IMG/VR virus record: IMGVR_UViG_3300037285_000062
Span: 1-34,542 of that record
DNA: 34,542 nucleotides
Direction: 5' to 3' (one strand)
Origin: a virus
Shown piece after piece: positions 12,393-30,286 of this stretch (position 1 is its first letter; every line of letters starts with the position of its first letter). The position numbers and the translations under genes were made by a program. The notes under the pieces were generated by a model, which did no database searches, was not told the DNA's origin, and worked only from the letters and a program-made list of their open reading frames with translations.

Positions 12393-13385
12393 ATGGACAA
12401 CAATCAAGATATGAGAAGAATTCTAGCAGGCTTTAATAAGCTTTCGACTAGAAAAAATATGAACGAATCTAGATCAATATACGAATGCCCGCCTGAAATG
12501 CCCAGCGCACCTGCTGATGCAGCAGCCACTGGCCAAATTAGCATAACTGGAGATGTGGGTGCAATTGGTGCAATGTTGTCAAAGCTAGCAAGTATTGAGT
12601 CAAATGGTACTACACGAAACTTGTCAACAGGTGACAATCCTGCAATACCTGGTGTTGACAGCAATCCGTTTGATAGCGACTCCGACGAAGGCATGATGGG
12701 ACAAATGGCAGGCGGGGCGCTGGGTAGTGTTGCTGGGACTGCATTAGGCGGCCCGATTGGCGGTGCAATCGGCAGCGCAGCAGGCGGAGCACTTGGCGAC
12801 AAGATGACAGATGAGTATGCAAATGAACCCGACGAAGAATACCAAGATACTAATTTTATGACCAAGGATCTTGCAGGCGGCCTCAACAGAGAAAAAGGTG
12901 CATATGCAGACGCAGAGGATGGTGACAATCCAATGGCAGTAACAGAAAAGTATACACCTGAGAAGTCCGGTGAGTTCTTTGACGACGATGACAATATAAC
13001 AATTAGATGGATGTACGACGAAGAAGCTGTAGGAGAAATTGAAATAACTGCATACGACGAAAGCGAAAATGAAATTGATCTAGATGACAAGCAAACACGT
13101 CACTATCAAGAAATGATTAGAGACGAAATGCAGCGTAACGCAGATGATTACGGCGATCACAAAATGCACCAACAGCAAGATGACGACGGTGACGCCATGG
13201 AGTCAAGAAAAATGGCTGTTGAAGACATCAAAGCTCGCCTTTACAAAGCTCTTTCAGAAGCAAAACCAGACTTCCTTGATATGGACAAAGATGGCGACAA
13301 AAAAGAGCCAATGAAAAAAGCAATTAAAGATAAAAAAGCCAACCCGTTTGCTAAGAAAACAGATAAGGCTGTAAAGGGAAAGTAA
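12393..13385 (+). CDS. Acidic protein with glycine zipper and a DxDxDG tail motif, function unknown
   Basis: The protein has 330 residues. Residues ~103-137 are a glycine zipper (repeated G-x3-G: 'GGALGSVAGTALGGPIGGAIG'), a type of segment that inserts into or crosses membranes. Residues 150-275 are strongly acidic. The C-terminus is basic and carries 'EAKPDFLDMDKDGDKKEPMK', a D-x-D-x-D-G calcium-loop-like motif. The DNA for this motif recurs almost unchanged in the gene at 16342. A glycine zipper in a late structural block suggests an internal virion protein that could act on the host membrane during DNA entry, but that is a guess. It is tightly packed between its neighbours (gaps of 1-2 bases). 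Confidence 0.6.
   Translation: MDNNQDMRRILAGFNKLSTRKNMNESRSIYECPPEMPSAPADAAATGQISITGDVGAIGAMLSKLASIESNGTTRNLSTGDNPAIPGVDSNPFDSDSDEGMMGQMAGGALGSVAGTALGGPIGGAIGSAAGGALGDKMTDEYANEPDEEYQDTNFMTKDLAGGLNREKGAYADAEDGDNPMAVTEKYTPEKSGEFFDDDDNITIRWMYDEEAVGEIEITAYDESENEIDLDDKQTRHYQEMIRDEMQRNADDYGDHKMHQQQDDDGDAMESRKMAVEDIKARLYKALSEAKPDFLDMDKDGDKKEPMKKAIKDKKANPFAKKTDKAVKGK
13255..13336 (+). repeat. Dispersed 82-bp coding repeat, copy 1
   Basis: By hand alignment about 78 of 82 bases match 17339-17420. It encodes the shared E-A-K-P-D-F-L-D-M-D-K-D-G-D motif and the Lys-rich stretch after it. Of the four differences, three are synonymous and one changes Ile to Val. Confidence 0.85.
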
Positions 13386-13387
13386 CC

Positions 13388-14029
13388 ATGGCACCATCTA
13401 CCTTAGACGGCGTATTAATTAAGAAAGCCAACCGTCAGGAAACATTCACCGAACAACAAATTGAACAACTAGTTGAGTGTATGGATCCTGATGTTGGCTA
13501 TCTTTACTTTGCCAAGATGTTTGCATACATTCAGCACCCTCTTAAGGGAAAGCTGCTGTATGATCCGTATGATTATCAGCTAGGATTGATGCACACGTAT
13601 CACAACTATCGATTCAACATCAATATGATGCCTAGACAAACTGGTAAGACAACTTGTGCAAGTATCTATCTTGCATGGTTTGCAATGTTCAAGCCGGATC
13701 AGACTATCTTGATTGCAGCACACAAATACACAGGTGCACAGGAAATTATGCAGCGTATCCGGTATGTTTACGAATTGTGCCCTGACCACATTAGAGCCGG
13801 AGTAACTAGCTATAATAAAGGCTCGATTGAATTTGAAAACGGTTCGCGCATCATTAGTCAAACAACTACACCTACTACAGGACGTGGTTTGGCTATCTCG
13901 CTACTATACTGTTTAGATGGCGATACAACTACTGTCCGAGTTCGTAATAAGCATACACTTATTGAAGAAGATATAACTCTTCGAGATTTGTATATCAGGA
14001 CACACAACCCTAAAAGAATTATCGGGTGA
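13388..14029 (+). CDS. gp17: Terminase large subunit gp17, N-terminal fragment fused to N-intein
   Basis: This is a 213-residue fragment. Residues 1-174 are the first part of the packaging ATPase: 'YFAKMFAYIQHPLKGKLLYDPYDYQ', Walker A P-R-Q-T-G-K-T-T (82-89), 'ILIAAHKYTGAQEIMQRIRYVYELCPDHI', 'YNKGSIEFENGSRIISQTTTP' and the first part of Walker B, I-S-L-L-Y. At Cys175 the sequence changes to C-L-D-G-D-T-T-T-V, an intein block A, and stops after 39 intein residues. The missing Asp-Glu of Walker B and the nuclease domain are encoded at 14930-16330. This piece alone cannot hydrolyse ATP, so trans-splicing is required. AAGGGA at 13375-13380 precedes the ATG. Confidence 0.93.
   Translation: MAPSTLDGVLIKKANRQETFTEQQIEQLVECMDPDVGYLYFAKMFAYIQHPLKGKLLYDPYDYQLGLMHTYHNYRFNINMMPRQTGKTTCASIYLAWFAMFKPDQTILIAAHKYTGAQEIMQRIRYVYELCPDHIRAGVTSYNKGSIEFENGSRIISQTTTPTTGRGLAISLLYCLDGDTTTVRVRNKHTLIEEDITLRDLYIRTHNPKRIIG
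13910..14026 (+). other. N-intein (IntN), 39 codons, of an atypical split intein
   Basis: It starts with Cys1 (TGT at 13910) in C-L-D-G-D-T, compared with C-V-Y-G-D-T in the AceL-TerL intein as I remember it. It continues with 'IEEDITLRDLY', parallel to 'IKIEDLY' there, and ends at the TGA at 14027. Canonical split inteins have N parts of about 90-120 residues, so this is the rare short-N type. Block B with its T-x-x-H is in the partner half. Confidence 0.88.
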
Positions 14030-14043
14030 TAAGTTTGCATTTG

Positions 14044-14051
14044 TATAAATA
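14044..14051 (+). promoter_or_regulatory. Late promoter TATAAATA abutting the endonuclease start codon
   Basis: This is a perfect octamer between the N-intein stop and the ATG at 14056, with four bases between octamer and ATG. No Shine-Dalgarno is present. It would drive the endonuclease, and the second gp17 fragment behind it, independently of the upstream genes. Confidence 0.6.
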
Positions 14052-14055
14052 CTGC

Positions 14056-14952
14056 ATGGATATAAAAATACAAGCATTTAAGAAACGAAACCAAAAGCGT
14101 AACGCGCATTTGTACGAATCGTCATTACAATCGGGCATAGATTATATATTATGTCCTGTAAGTGACGAACGTCTTAGTATGATCAAGACATCGTACATTG
14201 AGCGAGTGTTACATATGAGCGTGGCAGAGTACGATAGACTGCACCCAGGAGTTCGGGGAGTTAGCAATGCACGAAAAGCAAACATCAAAAAAGGACTTAG
14301 TACAGTTGACTCTGCTACTGGGCTAACTGCTTACGAAACATCGCAAGTTGCTGCCCAACAAACGCTATCTAAGCTAGACGCCGATGGTATTAGTGGATAT
14401 AGTAAAAAAGGCCAAAAAACTAGAGCAACGCATATGAGCAATGTTGACGAGTTCGGCCGTAACGGTTATTCGCAATTAGCAACTCTTGCAATTACTAAAG
14501 GTAACGCAACAAAAGCAGCCAAGGGTCTTATATTAGATCCGGCGCAGCGTAATGAGTTTTATCGGTATAAGTCAGTTGTAACGTATGTCACTGAACAGCA
14601 TAGACTAGCAATAACCTCGGGTTATAAAACTGGACTTGCCGGAGTTGAAGGTGCACATCATATAGACCATATATTTTCTATTATGCAAGGATACAAAAAC
14701 CGTGTTAGTCCGTTGCTTATCGGAAGTATACATAACTTACAAATGCTTCCGTGGAAAGAAAACATATCAAAGCACAGTGCGTGCAGTATTACAATAGATT
14801 TGTTGTTAACTAACGCTAGTTATACTATTAATAAATCATTGTACGAGTTTGACGTATTTGCTAAGATGATTAATACCGACATGCAGCATGCGGCACCTGT
14901 TAGTGGAGCAAGGTTAGTAAAGGAATTCAATGAAACAAATATACGCACCTAA
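14056..14952 (+). CDS. Free-standing HNH-type homing endonuclease inside the split terminase
   Basis: The protein has 298 residues from the ATG at 14056. An upstream GTG at 14026 overlaps the previous stop and is less likely. Residues 31-65 resemble the CPxC..HL..HGMS..EY..P recognition element of phage HNH endonucleases, though the second Cys is replaced ('ILCPVSDERLSMIKTSYIERVLHMSVAEYDRLHP'). Residues 105-140 hold 'LDADGISGYSKKGQK' and 'VDEFGRNGYSQLA'. The HNH core is at ~198-240: 'EGAHHIDHIFS', then 'IHNLQMLPW', then 'KENISKH'. The enzyme should nick or cut an unsplit gp17 allele at the intein site and promote homing. Its end overlaps the start of the C-intein gene by 23 bases. Confidence 0.87.
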   Translation: MDIKIQAFKKRNQKRNAHLYESSLQSGIDYILCPVSDERLSMIKTSYIERVLHMSVAEYDRLHPGVRGVSNARKANIKKGLSTVDSATGLTAYETSQVAAQQTLSKLDADGISGYSKKGQKTRATHMSNVDEFGRNGYSQLATLAITKGNATKAAKGLILDPAQRNEFYRYKSVVTYVTEQHRLAITSGYKTGLAGVEGAHHIDHIFSIMQGYKNRVSPLLIGSIHNLQMLPWKENISKHSACSITIDLLLTNASYTINKSLYEFDVFAKMINTDMQHAAPVSGARLVKEFNETNIRT

Positions 14953-15265
14953 TACAGAATATGAAATATTAACTCCTAACGGGTGGGAAGAATTTGAAGG
15001 TATTTTCTTAAATGAAAATGCAAATAAAGAATCTTGTAAAATAACATTTACCGACGGTACTTTCGTTACTGCAACGTTAGAACACCGGTTTTTTATTAAC
15101 GGTGTAGAAACAAGAGTAAATGATATAATTGTAGGTGACAGGTTAGATTCGCACAATACTATTAAAACTGTGGCAGACCTAACATCTGTAGTTTTAGAAG
15201 ACACTTATGAAATATTTAATGCAGAAAATCATGTAATAATTGCAAATAATATTAACTCTCATCAA
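14930..15265 (+). other. C-intein (IntC), 112 codons, of an atypical split intein
   Basis: It begins 'MKQIYAPNTEYEILTPNGWEE', parallel to the start of AceL-TerL IntC ('ILSPNGF'). It has block B T-L-E-H (49-52), 'VNDIIVGDRL' as the conserved turn before the second half, block F 'YEIFNAENHVIIAN', and ends N-N-I-N-S-H-Q with Cys+1 (TGT at 15266). The C-terminal residue is Gln in place of the usual Asn. Confidence 0.88.
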
Positions 15266-16330
15266 TGTGACGAATTTGCATTTGTGCAACCAAACATTGC
15301 TGAAGAATTTTGGGCATCAATTTCGCCTACACTGGCAACTGGTGGACGCGCAATTATCACAAGCACACCAAACTCAGATGAAGATACATTTGCTACTATT
15401 TGGAAAGATGCCGAAAAGAGATTTGACGAATATGGCGTTGAACAAGAATTAGGCATCAATGGATTCCGTAGTTTTATCTCAGAGTGGCACGAGCATCCGG
15501 ATAGAGACGAAGAGTGGAAAAAAGGCGAGGTTGGCCGTATCGGCGAGGAACGTTTCCGCCGCGAGTATGGCTGCGAGTTCTTGGTATTTGACGAGACGCT
15601 AATACACTCACTTAAACTTGCTACATTAGAAGGAGAAGCGCCTTTATTGAATATGGGCCATACACGATGGTATAAAAGACCAAGTTCAAAATACAGCTAT
15701 GTGGTGTCACTTGATCCTGCTATGGGTACAGGCGGCAACAACGCAGCATTACAAATATATGAAATTCCTACGTATGAACAAGTTGGGGAATGGTGTCACA
15801 ACGAAACCGGAATCCCTGGCCAGGTTCGTGTATTAAAAGATATCTGCCAATATATTGCTGACGAAACCAAGAGCGGCGGCGACAACATATACTGGAGCGT
15901 TGAGAACAATGGATTAGGCGAAGCAGCACTGATTGTAATCAACGATTATGGCGAAGAAAATATACCAGGATTGTTTATCAGTGAGCCTATGAGAAAAGGT
16001 CATGTAAGAAAGTTTCGCAAAGGATTTAACACCACACACGGTGCGAAAATGACCATTTGCGCAAGATTAAAAACAATGATTGAAAACGATCAACTGTTGT
16101 TGCGAAGCAAACCGCTTATATCTGAATTAAAAAATTATGTCAAGTCGAATACCAGTTTTCAAGCAAAGCAAGGACACGGCGACGACTTAGTTAGTTCTAC
16201 ATTACTTGCATTGAGAATGATCACAGTGATCAAAGATTGGGACCCGTCGATATACAATACTTTCATACATCTTGAGCCAGACGAGGATTACGAGCAGCCA
16301 ATGCCCATCTTTGTCAGCAGTAGCTTTTGA
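14930..16330 (+). CDS. gp17: C-intein fused to terminase large subunit gp17, C-terminal fragment
   Basis: The protein has 466 residues. AAGGA at 14920-14924 precedes the ATG. Residues 1-112 are the C-intein. From Cys113 the sequence is terminase: C-D-E-F-A-F (Walker B acidic pair D114-E115), 'GGRAIITSTPNSDED' (coupling motif), then the RNase H-type nuclease with 'VVSLDPAMGTGGNNAAL' (D262), 'WSVENNGLGEAALIVI' (E324) and 'KQGHGDDLVSSTLLAL' (D418/D419). After splicing, 174 + 354 residues give a 528-residue gp17, close to marine relatives and shorter than T4 (610). The spliced junction L-L-Y-C-D-E-F-A-F restores a normal Walker B. Splicing is therefore essential for packaging unless an unsplit copy exists elsewhere. 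Confidence 0.95.
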   Translation: MKQIYAPNTEYEILTPNGWEEFEGIFLNENANKESCKITFTDGTFVTATLEHRFFINGVETRVNDIIVGDRLDSHNTIKTVADLTSVVLEDTYEIFNAENHVIIANNINSHQCDEFAFVQPNIAEEFWASISPTLATGGRAIITSTPNSDEDTFATIWKDAEKRFDEYGVEQELGINGFRSFISEWHEHPDRDEEWKKGEVGRIGEERFRREYGCEFLVFDETLIHSLKLATLEGEAPLLNMGHTRWYKRPSSKYSYVVSLDPAMGTGGNNAALQIYEIPTYEQVGEWCHNETGIPGQVRVLKDICQYIADETKSGGDNIYWSVENNGLGEAALIVINDYGEENIPGLFISEPMRKGHVRKFRKGFNTTHGAKMTICARLKTMIENDQLLLRSKPLISELKNYVKSNTSFQAKQGHGDDLVSSTLLALRMITVIKDWDPSIYNTFIHLEPDEDYEQPMPIFVSSSF

Positions 16331-16336
16331 TAAATA
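16329..16336 (+). promoter_or_regulatory. Late promoter GATAAATA abutting a start codon
   Basis: The octamer overlaps the gp17 stop (TGA) and is followed by ATAGT and the ATG at 16342. This is the same five-base spacing as at 9451, and 17 of 18 bases are shared with that site. No Shine-Dalgarno. Confidence 0.6.
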
Positions 16337-16341
16337 ATAGT

Positions 16342-17799
16342 ATGAAAAACCTAGATCGCATTGGTGCAGAATTATTCAATAAAATTCGAGGACGTTTTCC
16401 TAACGTAACCATTGGCGACGAAGAAGGCAACGTGACAAATGTACCAGAAGAAGCCCGTTATTACGATTTTTCGTATATGAGTAATGGTGAAGAACTTGGC
16501 AAGATTAGCGTAAGTCTTGATGACGATACCGGAGTTTCGGTTATAGTTAGCAAAGACTTAGTAGCAGATCAAGACGAAGATGTGCAGGATGTATGGTATG
16601 ATTTTTTAAGAGAGCTTCGAAGGTTTTCTAAAAAGAGATTAATGCCATTTTCTGTACGTGATATAAACAAAAAACAATTAAACAAAAAAGATTATTACTT
16701 TTTAGCAAAAAATCGTTCTGGAGATGATCAGATGTCTGAATCAAAAATGTATGGTACACTGAATACCAGTTATCAAAAAATAGGTAATGCTAGGTTGGCA
16801 ATCAAGCATTCACAGCCTATTAACGTAGAGAGCGCTAATAGCAGAACTCAAAAAATTAAAGCAATTTATGTTGAATCGCCAGAGGGTGAGAGATTTAAGT
16901 ATCCATTCAAGCACCTAAGCGGTGCCCGTGCAATGGCAATGCATGTTAGCGAAGGCGGCAATGCATATGACGATTTTGGAAAGTATATTTCAGGACTGTC
17001 AGAAGAAGCATCTAAGCTGCGCAAGTTTACCCAATATATTGGCCGAAGTTCGGTTATGGCAGAAACACTAGGCGGCTATAAAGACATTGTCAAAGGCAGA
17101 GTTACTGAAGTTAAAAAAGAAATTATAGGCTTGCAAAAGGCAGCTTATTATCAAGAAGCAATTGCAAAGTTTACTCCGGCATTGATTGAGGATGTTCCGG
17201 ACGAAGTTTCAGAAAACTGGATTGATCAACTTACTATCAAACAATTTAATGAAGAGCTAACTGATATTTTTCCATACATATATCGCTTAGTTGGAGAAGC
17301 AACAAAAGCCAAAGAGTTGTCGTATGACGATCTTGTAGCAGAAGCAAAACCAGACTTCCTTGACATGGACAAAGATGGCGACAAAAAAGAGCCAATGAAA
17401 AAAGCAGTTAAGGATAAGAAGTCCAAGGACGATGTAGCAATCGAAAGCGCGATTGATAGGTTAATGGGACAATGGAGCGAGTCAGATGACGACGACAAAG
17501 TTCCTACTGACGATTCAAACATTAGCGACGAGGAACCTGCAAAAACTCCAATTGGCGAGTTTATTCTTAGTTATTTTGACAGAGAGACTGGAAAATTTCC
17601 AAAAGGCGAAACAGCAGTACTAACTGCTGTACAAAAGGAGTATGGCGATCAGTTTGTAAAACCATCTGTAAAGTTTATACAAAAGGTGGAAAGCGCCAAT
17701 CTTTCCCAACAGCAACAAGACGCACCATCAGTACAAGAACAACCACAAGACACACAGGCACACGACACAGCAAGGCTAAGACACCTATCCGGAATGTAA
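16342..17799 (+). CDS. Probable virion-module protein with DxDxDG motif, function unknown
   Basis: The protein has 485 residues from the ATG at 16342. A TTG five codons earlier would place the promoter inside the gene, so I prefer the ATG. Residues 1-115 form an alpha-beta domain ('LDRIGAELFNKIRGRFPNVTIGDEEGNVTNVPEEARYYDFSY'). Residues 165-325 are rich in helices, with 'HLSGARAMAMHVSEGGNAYDDFGKYISGLSEEASKLRKF'. About residues 333-355 hold 'EAKPDFLDMDKDGDKKEPMK', shared with the 330-residue protein at 12393. A Gln-rich tail ends it. I recall related long proteins near gp17 in marine T4-like phages but no defined role. The late promoter suggests a virion protein. Confidence 0.65.
   Translation: MKNLDRIGAELFNKIRGRFPNVTIGDEEGNVTNVPEEARYYDFSYMSNGEELGKISVSLDDDTGVSVIVSKDLVADQDEDVQDVWYDFLRELRRFSKKRLMPFSVRDINKKQLNKKDYYFLAKNRSGDDQMSESKMYGTLNTSYQKIGNARLAIKHSQPINVESANSRTQKIKAIYVESPEGERFKYPFKHLSGARAMAMHVSEGGNAYDDFGKYISGLSEEASKLRKFTQYIGRSSVMAETLGGYKDIVKGRVTEVKKEIIGLQKAAYYQEAIAKFTPALIEDVPDEVSENWIDQLTIKQFNEELTDIFPYIYRLVGEATKAKELSYDDLVAEAKPDFLDMDKDGDKKEPMKKAVKDKKSKDDVAIESAIDRLMGQWSESDDDDKVPTDDSNISDEEPAKTPIGEFILSYFDRETGKFPKGETAVLTAVQKEYGDQFVKPSVKFIQKVESANLSQQQQDAPSVQEQPQDTQAHDTARLRHLSGM
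17339..17420 (+). repeat. Dispersed 82-bp coding repeat, copy 2
   Basis: This is the partner of 13255-13336, exactly 4084 bases downstream and in the same orientation. It is internal to the 485-residue protein, whereas copy 1 is near the C-terminus of its protein. Confidence 0.85.
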
Positions 17800-29710: not shown

Positions 29711-30286
29711 ATGAATACAACATTAGATAATGCACGCGAACTAGTAAAGTGTGCAAGCGACATTGAATATTTTGCAGAGAAATATATCAGAGTTGACCAT
29801 CCTATCAACGGAAGAATGACTCTTGTGCTCAGAGCTGAGCAGAAAGAGATGATTAAAAAGTACCAAGATAACAAATCATTTCTAGGAGCGTACAGACGCC
29901 AGTGCGGTAAATCCACTGTTGGATATGTTATAATGTTGCATAATATTTTGTTTGGCGATATTGCCAATCACTTGATATTAAGCCGAAACTCGCGCTCCAC
30001 AATAGAGAACGTTTTTCTTATGCATAATCACCTACCCGAGTTTCTAAGAAGTATAGCAGACATAACAGTGCGCAGCAACCATTCGATACACTTTTCTAAC
30101 GGCTCTACAATTGATGCCACAAAACGGCCAGACAATGACACTCCTTATTCTACAGTTTACGTTGATGAAGCCGGCTTTTTTGATGAAAAAACAACAGAGG
30201 CTGGAGAAAGCATTAAAAACAACGTAGGGATTACCAAATTCTTTTGTCTAACAAGCACTAGATTAAACGAATTGTTTGGCTATTAA
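29711..30286 (+). CDS. Stand-alone gp17-type terminase ATPase domain
   Basis: The protein has 191 residues from the ATG at 29711. A TTG at 29699 lies inside uvsW. The order of motifs follows the N-terminal ATPase of gp17: 'FAEKYIRVDHPINGRMTLVLRAEQKEMI', Walker A R-R-Q-C-G-K-S-T (62-69), 'ANHLILSRNSRSTIENVFLMHNHLPEFLRS', 'SNHSIHFSNGSTIDATKRP', Walker B 'TVYVDEAGFFDE' (D152-E153) and coupling motif 'FFCLTSTRLN'. It then stops, with no nuclease domain. All ATPase residues look intact, so it may be an active NTPase. It is not interrupted by an intein. It is bracketed by a 16-bp direct repeat. The role is unknown. Options include a packaging regulator, a recombination motor partner of UvsW, or a decaying duplicate. 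Confidence 0.75.
   Translation: MNTTLDNARELVKCASDIEYFAEKYIRVDHPINGRMTLVLRAEQKEMIKKYQDNKSFLGAYRRQCGKSTVGYVIMLHNILFGDIANHLILSRNSRSTIENVFLMHNHLPEFLRSIADITVRSNHSIHFSNGSTIDATKRPDNDTPYSTVYVDEAGFFDEKTTEAGESIKNNVGITKFFCLTSTRLNELFGY

What the first reader, a model, noticed from the sequence alone, without database searches (positions are those of the whole stretch)
13388..16330. Fractured terminase gene: atypical split intein interrupts gp17 inside Walker B with an HNH endonuclease gene between the halves
Seen: the gp17 frame ends after I-S-L-L-Y plus C-L-D-G-D-T (intein block A), and a second gene begins with a block B/F/G-bearing segment ending S-H-Q before C-D-E-F-A-F, the missing acidic half of Walker B. 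Joining the exteins (174 + 354 residues) rebuilds a normal gp17. The N-intein is 39 residues and the C-intein 112, the reverse of canonical split inteins. Known: 'fractured genes' with split inteins and free-standing endonucleases occur in marine phage metagenomes, and AceL-TerL is a terminase split intein with a short N part. Inferred: DNA packaging in this phage depends on trans-splicing, and the endonuclease drives homing of the whole arrangement. This would be a new member of the rare short-N class with its complete genetic context.
Basis: partly seen in the sequence, partly recalled or inferred. Interest (0 to 1): 0.92.

Follow-up and report, generated by a model that had tools for sequence, protein, structure and literature searches.

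The report
Terminase gene fractured by mobile intein
A bacteriophage's essential DNA-packaging motor gene is cut in two by a mobile element that carries its own DNA-cutting gene and two pieces of a self-splicing protein, so the motor probably has to be rejoined at the protein level in every infection; near-identical copies of the element in otherwise different phages show that it has spread recently.

Summary
gp17 is broken between ISLLY and CDEFAF by a 39-residue N-intein, a 298-codon HNH-type endonuclease gene and a 112-residue C-intein. The joined exteins (528 aa) align without internal gaps to intact terminases (77%). Both intein parts match the Cat/AceL-type atypical split intein (PDB 6DSL), and a naturally fused relative is predicted to have the Hint fold. 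The insertion site (Walker B) differs from the |CEFL site inferred for AceL-TerL, and the C-terminal residue is Gln in 64 of 68 relatives.

The 1356-bp element is mobile as a unit: copies 99.6% identical sit in flanks only about 81% identical, and empty and filled alleles interleave on the extein tree. Relatives show the endonuclease intact, decayed, replaced or deleted, and the intein re-fused into a cis form. Some related terminases carry two to four inteins.

New here: between the N-intein and the endonuclease gene lies a conserved copy of the first ~18 nt of the target's right half, abutting a TATAAATA late promoter and supplying the N-half's stop codon. This layout resembles the I-TevI operator. 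Splicing, homing and repression are inferred, not shown. It is a new variant of a known kind.

The parts
13388..13909 (+). gp17 (TerL) N-extein, residues 1-174: Walker A PRQTGKTT and the hydrophobic half of Walker B (ISLLY)
   Evidence: T4 gp17, E 4.5e-26; PHROG terminase large subunit
13910..15265 (+). whole mobile unit, 1356 bp: N-intein, half-site copy with late promoter, endonuclease gene, C-intein
   Evidence: Element identical to 1351/1356 between L006 and L132 while flanks are 82.7/79.3%; same length in window, L006, L086, L132, L141
13910..14026 (+). N-intein, 39 codons (Cys1, block A CLDGDT); stop TGA 14027-14029
   Evidence: profile matches CatN of 6DSL E 3e-4
14027..14044 (+). conserved copy of the start of the C-extein (TGATAAGTTTGCATTTGT; extein TGACGAATTTGCATTTGT); out of frame with the N-intein and supplies its TGA stop
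   Evidence: 16/21 to own C-extein, best of 2000 shuffles 15; across 17 elements the 18 nt are 88% identical, against 46% at endonuclease third positions and 44% in the 25 nt just upstream
14044..14051 (+). TATAAATA, T4-type late promoter element 4 nt before the endonuclease ATG
   Evidence: ATAAATA present in 24 of 25 endonuclease-type loci inspected; 9 of 12 plus-strand ATAAATA in the window lie within 80 nt upstream of gene starts, binomial P 3e-8
14056..14952 (+). free-standing endonuclease gene, 298 codons, HNH-type motif H202-x-D204-H205 ... N227 ... N236-x-x-K239
   Evidence: D204, H205, N227, N236, K239 invariant in 22; PHROG endonuclease VII E 1e-3; dN/dS 0.14; structure model
14919..14924 (+). 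AAAGGA ribosome-binding site for the C-half, inside the end of the endonuclease gene
   Evidence: Sequence
14930..15265 (+). C-intein, 112 codons (block B TATLEH, block F, block G SHQ)
   Evidence: profile matches CatC of 6DSL E 1.7e-8 and gp41-1 6QAZ E 8e-10
15266..16330 (+). gp17 C-extein, 354 codons plus stop: acidic half of Walker B (CDEFAF), coupling motif, nuclease domain

Best explanation
The terminase gene of this T4-like phage has been invaded at the Walker B motif by a 1356-bp mobile element made of an atypically split intein (short N, long C) and a free-standing HNH-type homing endonuclease gene. Inferred working: the N-half (TerL 1-174 + IntN) and the C-half (IntC + TerL 175-528, translated from its own RBS at the end of the endonuclease gene) are made separately. 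IntN folds onto IntC, Cys1 and Cys+1 carry out class 1 trans-splicing with cyclisation of a C-terminal Gln instead of Asn, and an exact terminase is released. Because the insert separates the hydrophobic half of Walker B from its catalytic D-E, neither half should be an active ATPase before splicing. In mixed infection the endonuclease would cut intein-less terminase alleles at the joined site, and repair would copy the whole element. A copy of the right half of that site lies against the endonuclease's late promoter and may be its operator (a sub-hypothesis, about 0.45). Shown by sequence: anatomy, family membership, mobility as a unit, and constraint on both proteins and on the half-site copy. 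Inferred: splicing, cleavage, repression.
For: Exact anatomy and a gapless joined terminase. Both intein parts match the two chains of the same atypical split intein, 6DSL. Hint-fold prediction from a naturally fused relative, pLDDT 88, Z up to 19. Block A Cys, block B T-x-x-H, Q112 and C+1 conserved. Purifying selection, dN/dS 0.14 endonuclease and 0.3 intein. Recent lateral spread: L006/L132 element 99.6% against flanks 81%; L086/L002 C-intein 336/336 against flanks about 80%. Filled and empty alleles interleave, at least 9 changes on the best extein tree, L086(filled)/L049(empty) sisters at 100. No intact TerL elsewhere in seven long relatives or in the complete SCTP-2 genome, an isolated phage whose only TerL is in three genes with intein halves. 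Half-site copy; T4 precedent in PMC2988022.
Against: No experiment on this protein. Single-sequence intein HMM matches are weak and below curated cut-offs; only profiles reach significance. Gln at the C-terminus slows some inteins (PMC4031507). The endonuclease has no significant solved-structure match and no Pfam HNH match. The window is a fragment, so a second intact terminase outside it is not excluded for this very phage. On the extein tree only 2 changes are forced by starred branches. The half-site copy does not track each phage's own extein, so an operator role is not proven by covariation.
Confidence: 0.88

Rival explanations
1. The gene is a dead or decaying terminase: the insertion has inactivated gp17 and packaging relies on another terminase.
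For: The window also holds a TerL-like ATPase gene (29711-30286), and ATPase-only TerL copies sit upstream of the split gene in L004, L005, L009 and L130.
Against: Those paralogues lack the nuclease domain and are 24-39% identical. Both halves and the intein keep catalytic residues and dN/dS well below 1. No intact terminase in seven long relatives or SCTP-2.
Confidence: 0.04
2. The two gene parts are joined at the RNA level by a group I or group II intron, as in phage ICP1 terL (PMC10448857), and the intein-like segments are incidental.
For: ICP1 terL shows that intron splicing does occur in phage terminases.
Against: No Rfam family at E up to 5 over 13300-16500. The boundaries fall exactly on intein blocks A and G; the N- and C-inteins are conserved as protein; fused cis forms L002 and L152 read through as one ORF.
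Confidence: 0.02
3. The halves assemble non-covalently and work as a two-chain terminase without peptide ligation; the intein parts act only as a docking pair.
For: Atypical split inteins associate tightly before reaction (general knowledge of the family).
Against: Splicing residues Cys1, block B His, Gln and Cys+1 are conserved, which docking alone would not need; the break separates the two halves of Walker B.
Confidence: 0.05
4. The half-site copy before the endonuclease is a relic of the insertion event, kept only because it supplies the stop codon and carries the promoter.
For: It gives the N-half its TGA and abuts TATAAATA; it does not match each phage's own extein better than others'.
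Against: All ~18 nt are conserved (88%) although the stop needs 3 nt and the promoter about 8; other late promoters in the window lack it. The same layout is proven as an operator for I-TevI (PMC2988022).
Confidence: 0.4

Closest known systems
AceL-TerL / GOS-TerL / consensus Cat atypically split inteins (Thiel 2014, Bachmann & Mootz, Stevens; PDB 6DSL)
   Same: Split after the first helix (S2 position), N part 25-37 aa and C part 104-115 aa (PMC11766414, PMC13014065), large terminase as host gene, N and C parts homologous by profile; 39 + 112 aa here.
   Different: Insertion at Walker B (|CDEF), about 100 residues before the |CEFL site that relatives closest to CatC occupy; C-terminal Gln instead of Asn; complete genetic context with endonuclease.
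Fractured genes with split inteins and free-standing endonucleases (Dassa et al. 2009)
   Same: Gene broken at an intein with an endonuclease ORF between the halves.
   Different: Short-N atypical split; HNH-type endonuclease of the phrog_5104 kind; mobile unit, empty alleles, cis re-fusions and half-site copy defined here. The 2009 paper could not be read.
MIJ3 PolB split intein with HNH ORF (PMC6892783)
   Same: Jumbo-phage gene split by an intein with an HNH gene between the parts.
   Different: DNA polymerase B, with blocks A, N2, B and N4 in the N part; not a short-N split.
Mycobacteriophage TerL1-e intein (PMC5050341)
   Same: Intein in the Walker B motif of a large terminase.
   Different: Cis-splicing; in the class 3 clade in that paper; Terminase_1 family.
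I-TevI autorepression (PMC2988022)
   Same: Sequence like the homing site (15/20) overlapping the late promoter of the endonuclease.
   Different: Group I intron and GIY-YIG enzyme; here an intein element and HNH-type enzyme, 16/21 match, binding not tested.
Salicola phage SCTP-2 TerL (MF360958 genes 534, 267, 224, 225)
   Same: Same site-2 split intein and a 33%-identical endonuclease beside the C-half.
   Different: TerL scattered over three distant genes, with split inteins at Walker A and Walker B and a cis intein further on.

Membership tests
Intein (Hint) protein-splicing domain | Cys/Ser at position 1, block B T-x-x-H, block G His then Asn/Gln, Cys/Ser/Thr +1 | tested here: met
   C1, T49/H52, H111 (SCTP-2 has Ser there), Q112 and C+1 conserved; terminal residue Gln in 64 of 68
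Intein (Hint) protein-splicing domain | Horseshoe all-beta Hint fold | tested here: met
   AF2 of fused relative L002 (pLDDT 88) matches PDB inteins, Foldseek E to 3e-7, VIA Z to 19
Intein (Hint) protein-splicing domain | Protein splicing activity | not testable with these tools
   Needs expression
Atypically split TerL inteins (AceL/GOS/Cat) | Short IntN split after first helix, long IntC | tested here: met
   39 + 112 aa; model helix 29-43 of L002 covers the end of IntN, disordered linker 45-56 at the split point
Atypically split TerL inteins (AceL/GOS/Cat) | Sequence homology of both parts to the characterised member | tested here: met
   CatN E 3e-4, CatC E 1.7e-8
Atypically split TerL inteins (AceL/GOS/Cat) | Same insertion site as AceL-TerL | tested here: inconclusive
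   +1/+2 here is C-D; CatC is followed by C-E, and the L181-type |CEFLG inteins match CatC; native AceL exteins not available
Fractured gene arrangement | Host gene in two ORFs at the intein split, endonuclease ORF between | tested here: met
Homing element | Empty alleles at the exact site and transfer with sharp boundaries | tested here: met
   Empty-site loci (L013 etc.), element/flank contrast, interleaving on extein tree
Homing element | Endonuclease cuts the empty allele | not testable with these tools
   Needs enzyme assay
HNH endonuclease | HNH catalytic motif | tested here: met
   D204, H205, N227, N236, K239 invariant in 22 sequences
HNH endonuclease | Significant match to a curated HNH profile or fold | tested here: inconclusive
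   PHROG endonuclease VII in 11 of 22 members, best E 1e-5; no Pfam HNH; fold hits to beta-beta-alpha-metal nucleases only Z 2-3.7
I-TevI-type autorepressing endonuclease | Homing-site-like sequence over the endonuclease promoter | tested here: met
   16/21 copy abutting TATAAATA, conserved in 24 loci
I-TevI-type autorepressing endonuclease | Endonuclease binds it and represses | not testable with these tools
   Needs EMSA or reporter

The most novel reading that the evidence does not exclude
Fractured short-N inteins are self-regulated homing units. The endonuclease gene sits behind a conserved copy of half of its own target site that overlaps a phage late promoter, acts as its operator and at the same time ends the N-intein reading frame; the position of the split in the intein may thus be set by the regulatory site. 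At least two unrelated endonuclease types (HNH at Walker B, GIY-YIG at |CEFL in L181-type loci) would have converged on this. Large terminases accumulate such units until the motor is assembled from up to four polypeptides (L180).
Probability: 0.4. Interest if true: 0.78.

Novelty: new variant of a known kind. Interest (0 to 1): 0.64.

Why it matters
It gives the atypical (short-N) split inteins a full natural history at one gene: empty alleles, recently transferred whole elements, decayed or deleted endonucleases, and cis re-fusions, all at one codon. That makes the open questions directly testable in the laboratory: how a split intein homes, how the endonuclease is controlled, and how short-N splits arise. 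The split inteins with a natural C-terminal Gln, and terminases carrying two or more split inteins at once, are also candidate orthogonal ligation tools.

Tried and rejected
RNA intron: no Rfam match. I-TevI-like RNA hairpin over the endonuclease start: fold not better than shuffles, z 0.7. Sigma-70 promoters and terminators: at the level of shuffles. Covariation of the half-site copy with each phage's own extein: none, weak at best for L161. Bacterial genomes: no relative of the C-intein by tblastn. The apparent intein tail in Salmonella phage Munch TerL is an alignment overrun; its TerL is a single 543-codon gene without an insert of this kind. MAFFT alignments A1, A4 and A5 misplaced the N fragments and were not used for conclusions; A7 with fused relatives was used. 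In one search the ranked list of element/flank differences is dominated by gapped alignments of endonuclease-less forms and is not used; only the four named pairs are. Dassa 2009 is not held. Foldseek gave no significant fold match for the endonuclease.
Full report
OBSERVATION. The window carries two ORFs that together make gp17. ORF 13388-14029 (213 aa) is TerL residues 1-174 followed by CLDGDTTTVRVRNKHTLIEEDITLRDLYIRTHNPKRIIG. ORF 14930-16330 (466 aa) begins with a 112-aa segment ending INSHQ and continues CDEFAFVQP.... The N-extein matches T4 gp17 (phmmer E 4.5e-26). Joined, the exteins are 528 aa and align to the intact terminase of relative L013 with 77.1% identity and no internal gap. 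The ORF between is best started at ATG 14056 (298 codons). It ends at 14952, overlapping the C-half, whose own ribosome-binding site AAAGGA lies inside it.

INTEIN IDENTITY. Single sequences match intein models only weakly (Pfam PF14890 E 0.012, TIGR01445 E 0.008). Profiles are decisive. The C-intein profile matches CatC, chain B of 6DSL, at E 1.7e-8 and the gp41-1 intein at 8e-10, in register to the last residues. The N-intein profile matches CatN, the other chain of 6DSL, at 3e-4. Cat is the engineered consensus of the AceL/GOS-TerL atypical split inteins (PMC11766414). A natural relative with the two parts fused (L002) gave an AlphaFold model of pLDDT 88. Its only disordered part is the linker where the others are split. 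It matches PDB inteins with Z up to 19. The predicted helix before that linker fits the S2 split position described for AceL and GOS TerL (PMC13014065).

WHERE IT DIFFERS. The insertion lies inside Walker B. The |CEFL site, about 100 residues further on, is occupied in other relatives by inteins that match CatC more closely (L181 type: E 1.1e-9 from a single sequence). From this, and from the Glu+2 noted in the literature, I infer that AceL/GOS-TerL sit there; native AceL exteins were not available. The last intein residue is Gln in 64 of 68 site-2 records and Asn in four distant ones. Gln-terminated inteins are known, with variable efficiency (PMC4031507).

ENDONUCLEASE. The protein is conserved down to 33% in SCTP-2. 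D204, H205, N227, N236 and K239 are invariant in 22 sequences. PHROG endonuclease VII is matched by 11 of 22 (best E 1e-5). A relative of its nuclease region in a T4-like Klebsiella phage is a free-standing gene annotated as homing endonuclease between tail sheath and tail tube genes. The AlphaFold model (pLDDT 91) gives only weak hits, many of them beta-beta-alpha-metal nucleases on residues 160-267. dN/dS is 0.14 against L086. HNH-type is thus well supported by motif, moderately by homology.

MOBILITY. Empty alleles with ISLLY|CDEFAF directly joined were found in about 50 of the first 80 terminase loci. On an extein tree of 34 filled and 28 empty alleles the state changes at least 9 times (only 2 forced by starred branches), and L086 (filled) is the sister of L049 (empty) with full support. 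The element is 1356 bp. Between L006 and L132 it is identical at 1351 of 1356 positions while the adjoining 300 nt are 82.7% and 79.3% identical, with mismatches from 10 and 18 nt outward. Between L086 and L002 the C-intein is 336/336 identical and flanks about 80%. Window and L086: element about 90%, flanks 75-78%. This is what recent lateral transfer of the whole unit with short co-conversion predicts.

LIFE CYCLE. Of 68 site-2 records, 46 are split with the endonuclease, 8 are split without a homologue of it, 6 are fused into one ORF, 6 have only part of the endonuclease (4 decayed, 2 at contig ends), and 2 are cut by contig ends. Records include near-duplicates, so these are not independent counts. 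In L052/L054 the halves overlap as ATGA. In L002 and L152 the ribosome-binding site is gone and the halves are joined in frame by linkers, each containing a perfect inverted repeat.

HALF-SITE COPY (new here). In the endonuclease-type loci the N-intein frame runs into a sequence that copies the beginning of the C-extein out of frame and is stopped by its TGA: window 14027-14044 TGATAAGTTTGCATTTGT, own extein TGACGAATTTGCATTTGT. TATAAATA follows directly (14044-14051), 4 nt before the endonuclease ATG. The match is 16/21 in the window, where 2000 shuffles reach at most 15. Across 17 elements the extein-like 18 nt are 88% identical, against 46% at third codon positions of the endonuclease and 44% for the 25 nt just upstream; the motif exceeds third positions in 136 of 136 pairs. 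It does not match each phage's own extein better than others', so repeated conversion is not the cause and the copy itself appears constrained. ATAAATA is the late-promoter-like element of this phage: 9 of 12 plus-strand copies lie within 80 nt upstream of gene starts, and the other late promoters lack the extein-like part. T4 offers a precedent: a sequence with 15/20 identity to the I-TevI homing site overlaps its late promoter, binds I-TevI equally well and represses it (PMC2988022). I therefore propose an operator, at about 0.45; a relic is the main rival. The L181-type elements at |CEFL, with a GIY-YIG endonuclease, also carry TGTGAGTTCATAGG, a copy of their CEFLG codons, at the end of the N-intein.

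DEPENDENCE ON SPLICING. No intact terminase was found in seven related contigs of 55-236 kb. The complete genome of isolated phage SCTP-2 has its only terminase in three genes at 429, 256 and 216 kb with intein halves at Walker A and Walker B. The window's second TerL-like gene (29711-30286) has both Walker motifs but no nuclease domain.

WIDER CONTEXT. Phages about 90% identical to the window over several kb carry an additional fractured split intein at |CEFL (L077, L116-L119). There the flanks show a co-conversion footprint: 27 mismatches to the window in the first 156 nt on the right, then 3 in the next 174 nt; 11 in 79 nt on the left. L087 has a LAGLIDADG-type intein at Walker A, the Walker B split intein and the |CEFL split intein in one terminase. 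In L180 the terminase is spread over four ORFs with three split inteins and one cis intein.

VERDICT. Splicing, cleavage and repression are inferences from anatomy, homology and conservation.

Noticed in passing
window 29711-30286 (+): Second, very divergent TerL-like ATPase gene (191 aa) with intact Walker A and B, no intein and no nuclease domain; 24% to intact TerL, 28% to another ATPase-only paralogue; relatives at 28-33% in 7 viral contigs. Function unknown.
   Followed up: partly
L005 2635-3441 (also L004, L009, L130): ATPase-only TerL paralogue (268 aa) directly upstream of the split terminase, ending at FRKEYECEI, i.e. exactly at the |CEFL intein site.
   Followed up: partly
L077 3522-5000; L087; L132: Second fractured split intein at |CEFL with a different endonuclease (Pfam DUF7487) in phages about 90% identical to the window, with a co-conversion footprint; the window lacks it.
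   Followed up: yes
L180 5510-10598: Terminase spread over four ORFs: split inteins at Walker A, Walker B and |CEFL plus a cis LAGLIDADG intein near motif III.
   Followed up: partly
MF360958 genes 534, 267, 224, 225: Isolated phage SCTP-2 has its terminase in three distant genes with split inteins at Walker A and B; the record labels all three terminase large subunit.
   Followed up: yes
L002 814-877; L152 5956-5998: The linkers of two independently fused inteins each contain a perfect inverted repeat (13-14 bp arms) in place of the endonuclease gene. Origin unknown.
   Followed up: no
window 9464, 14056, 16342: Late-promoter element ATAAATA lies only 4-5 nt before the start codon of several genes, so late messages may be leaderless.
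   Followed up: no
L081/L133 4461-5000: Endonuclease between the split intein halves replaced by an unrelated small ORF.
   Followed up: no
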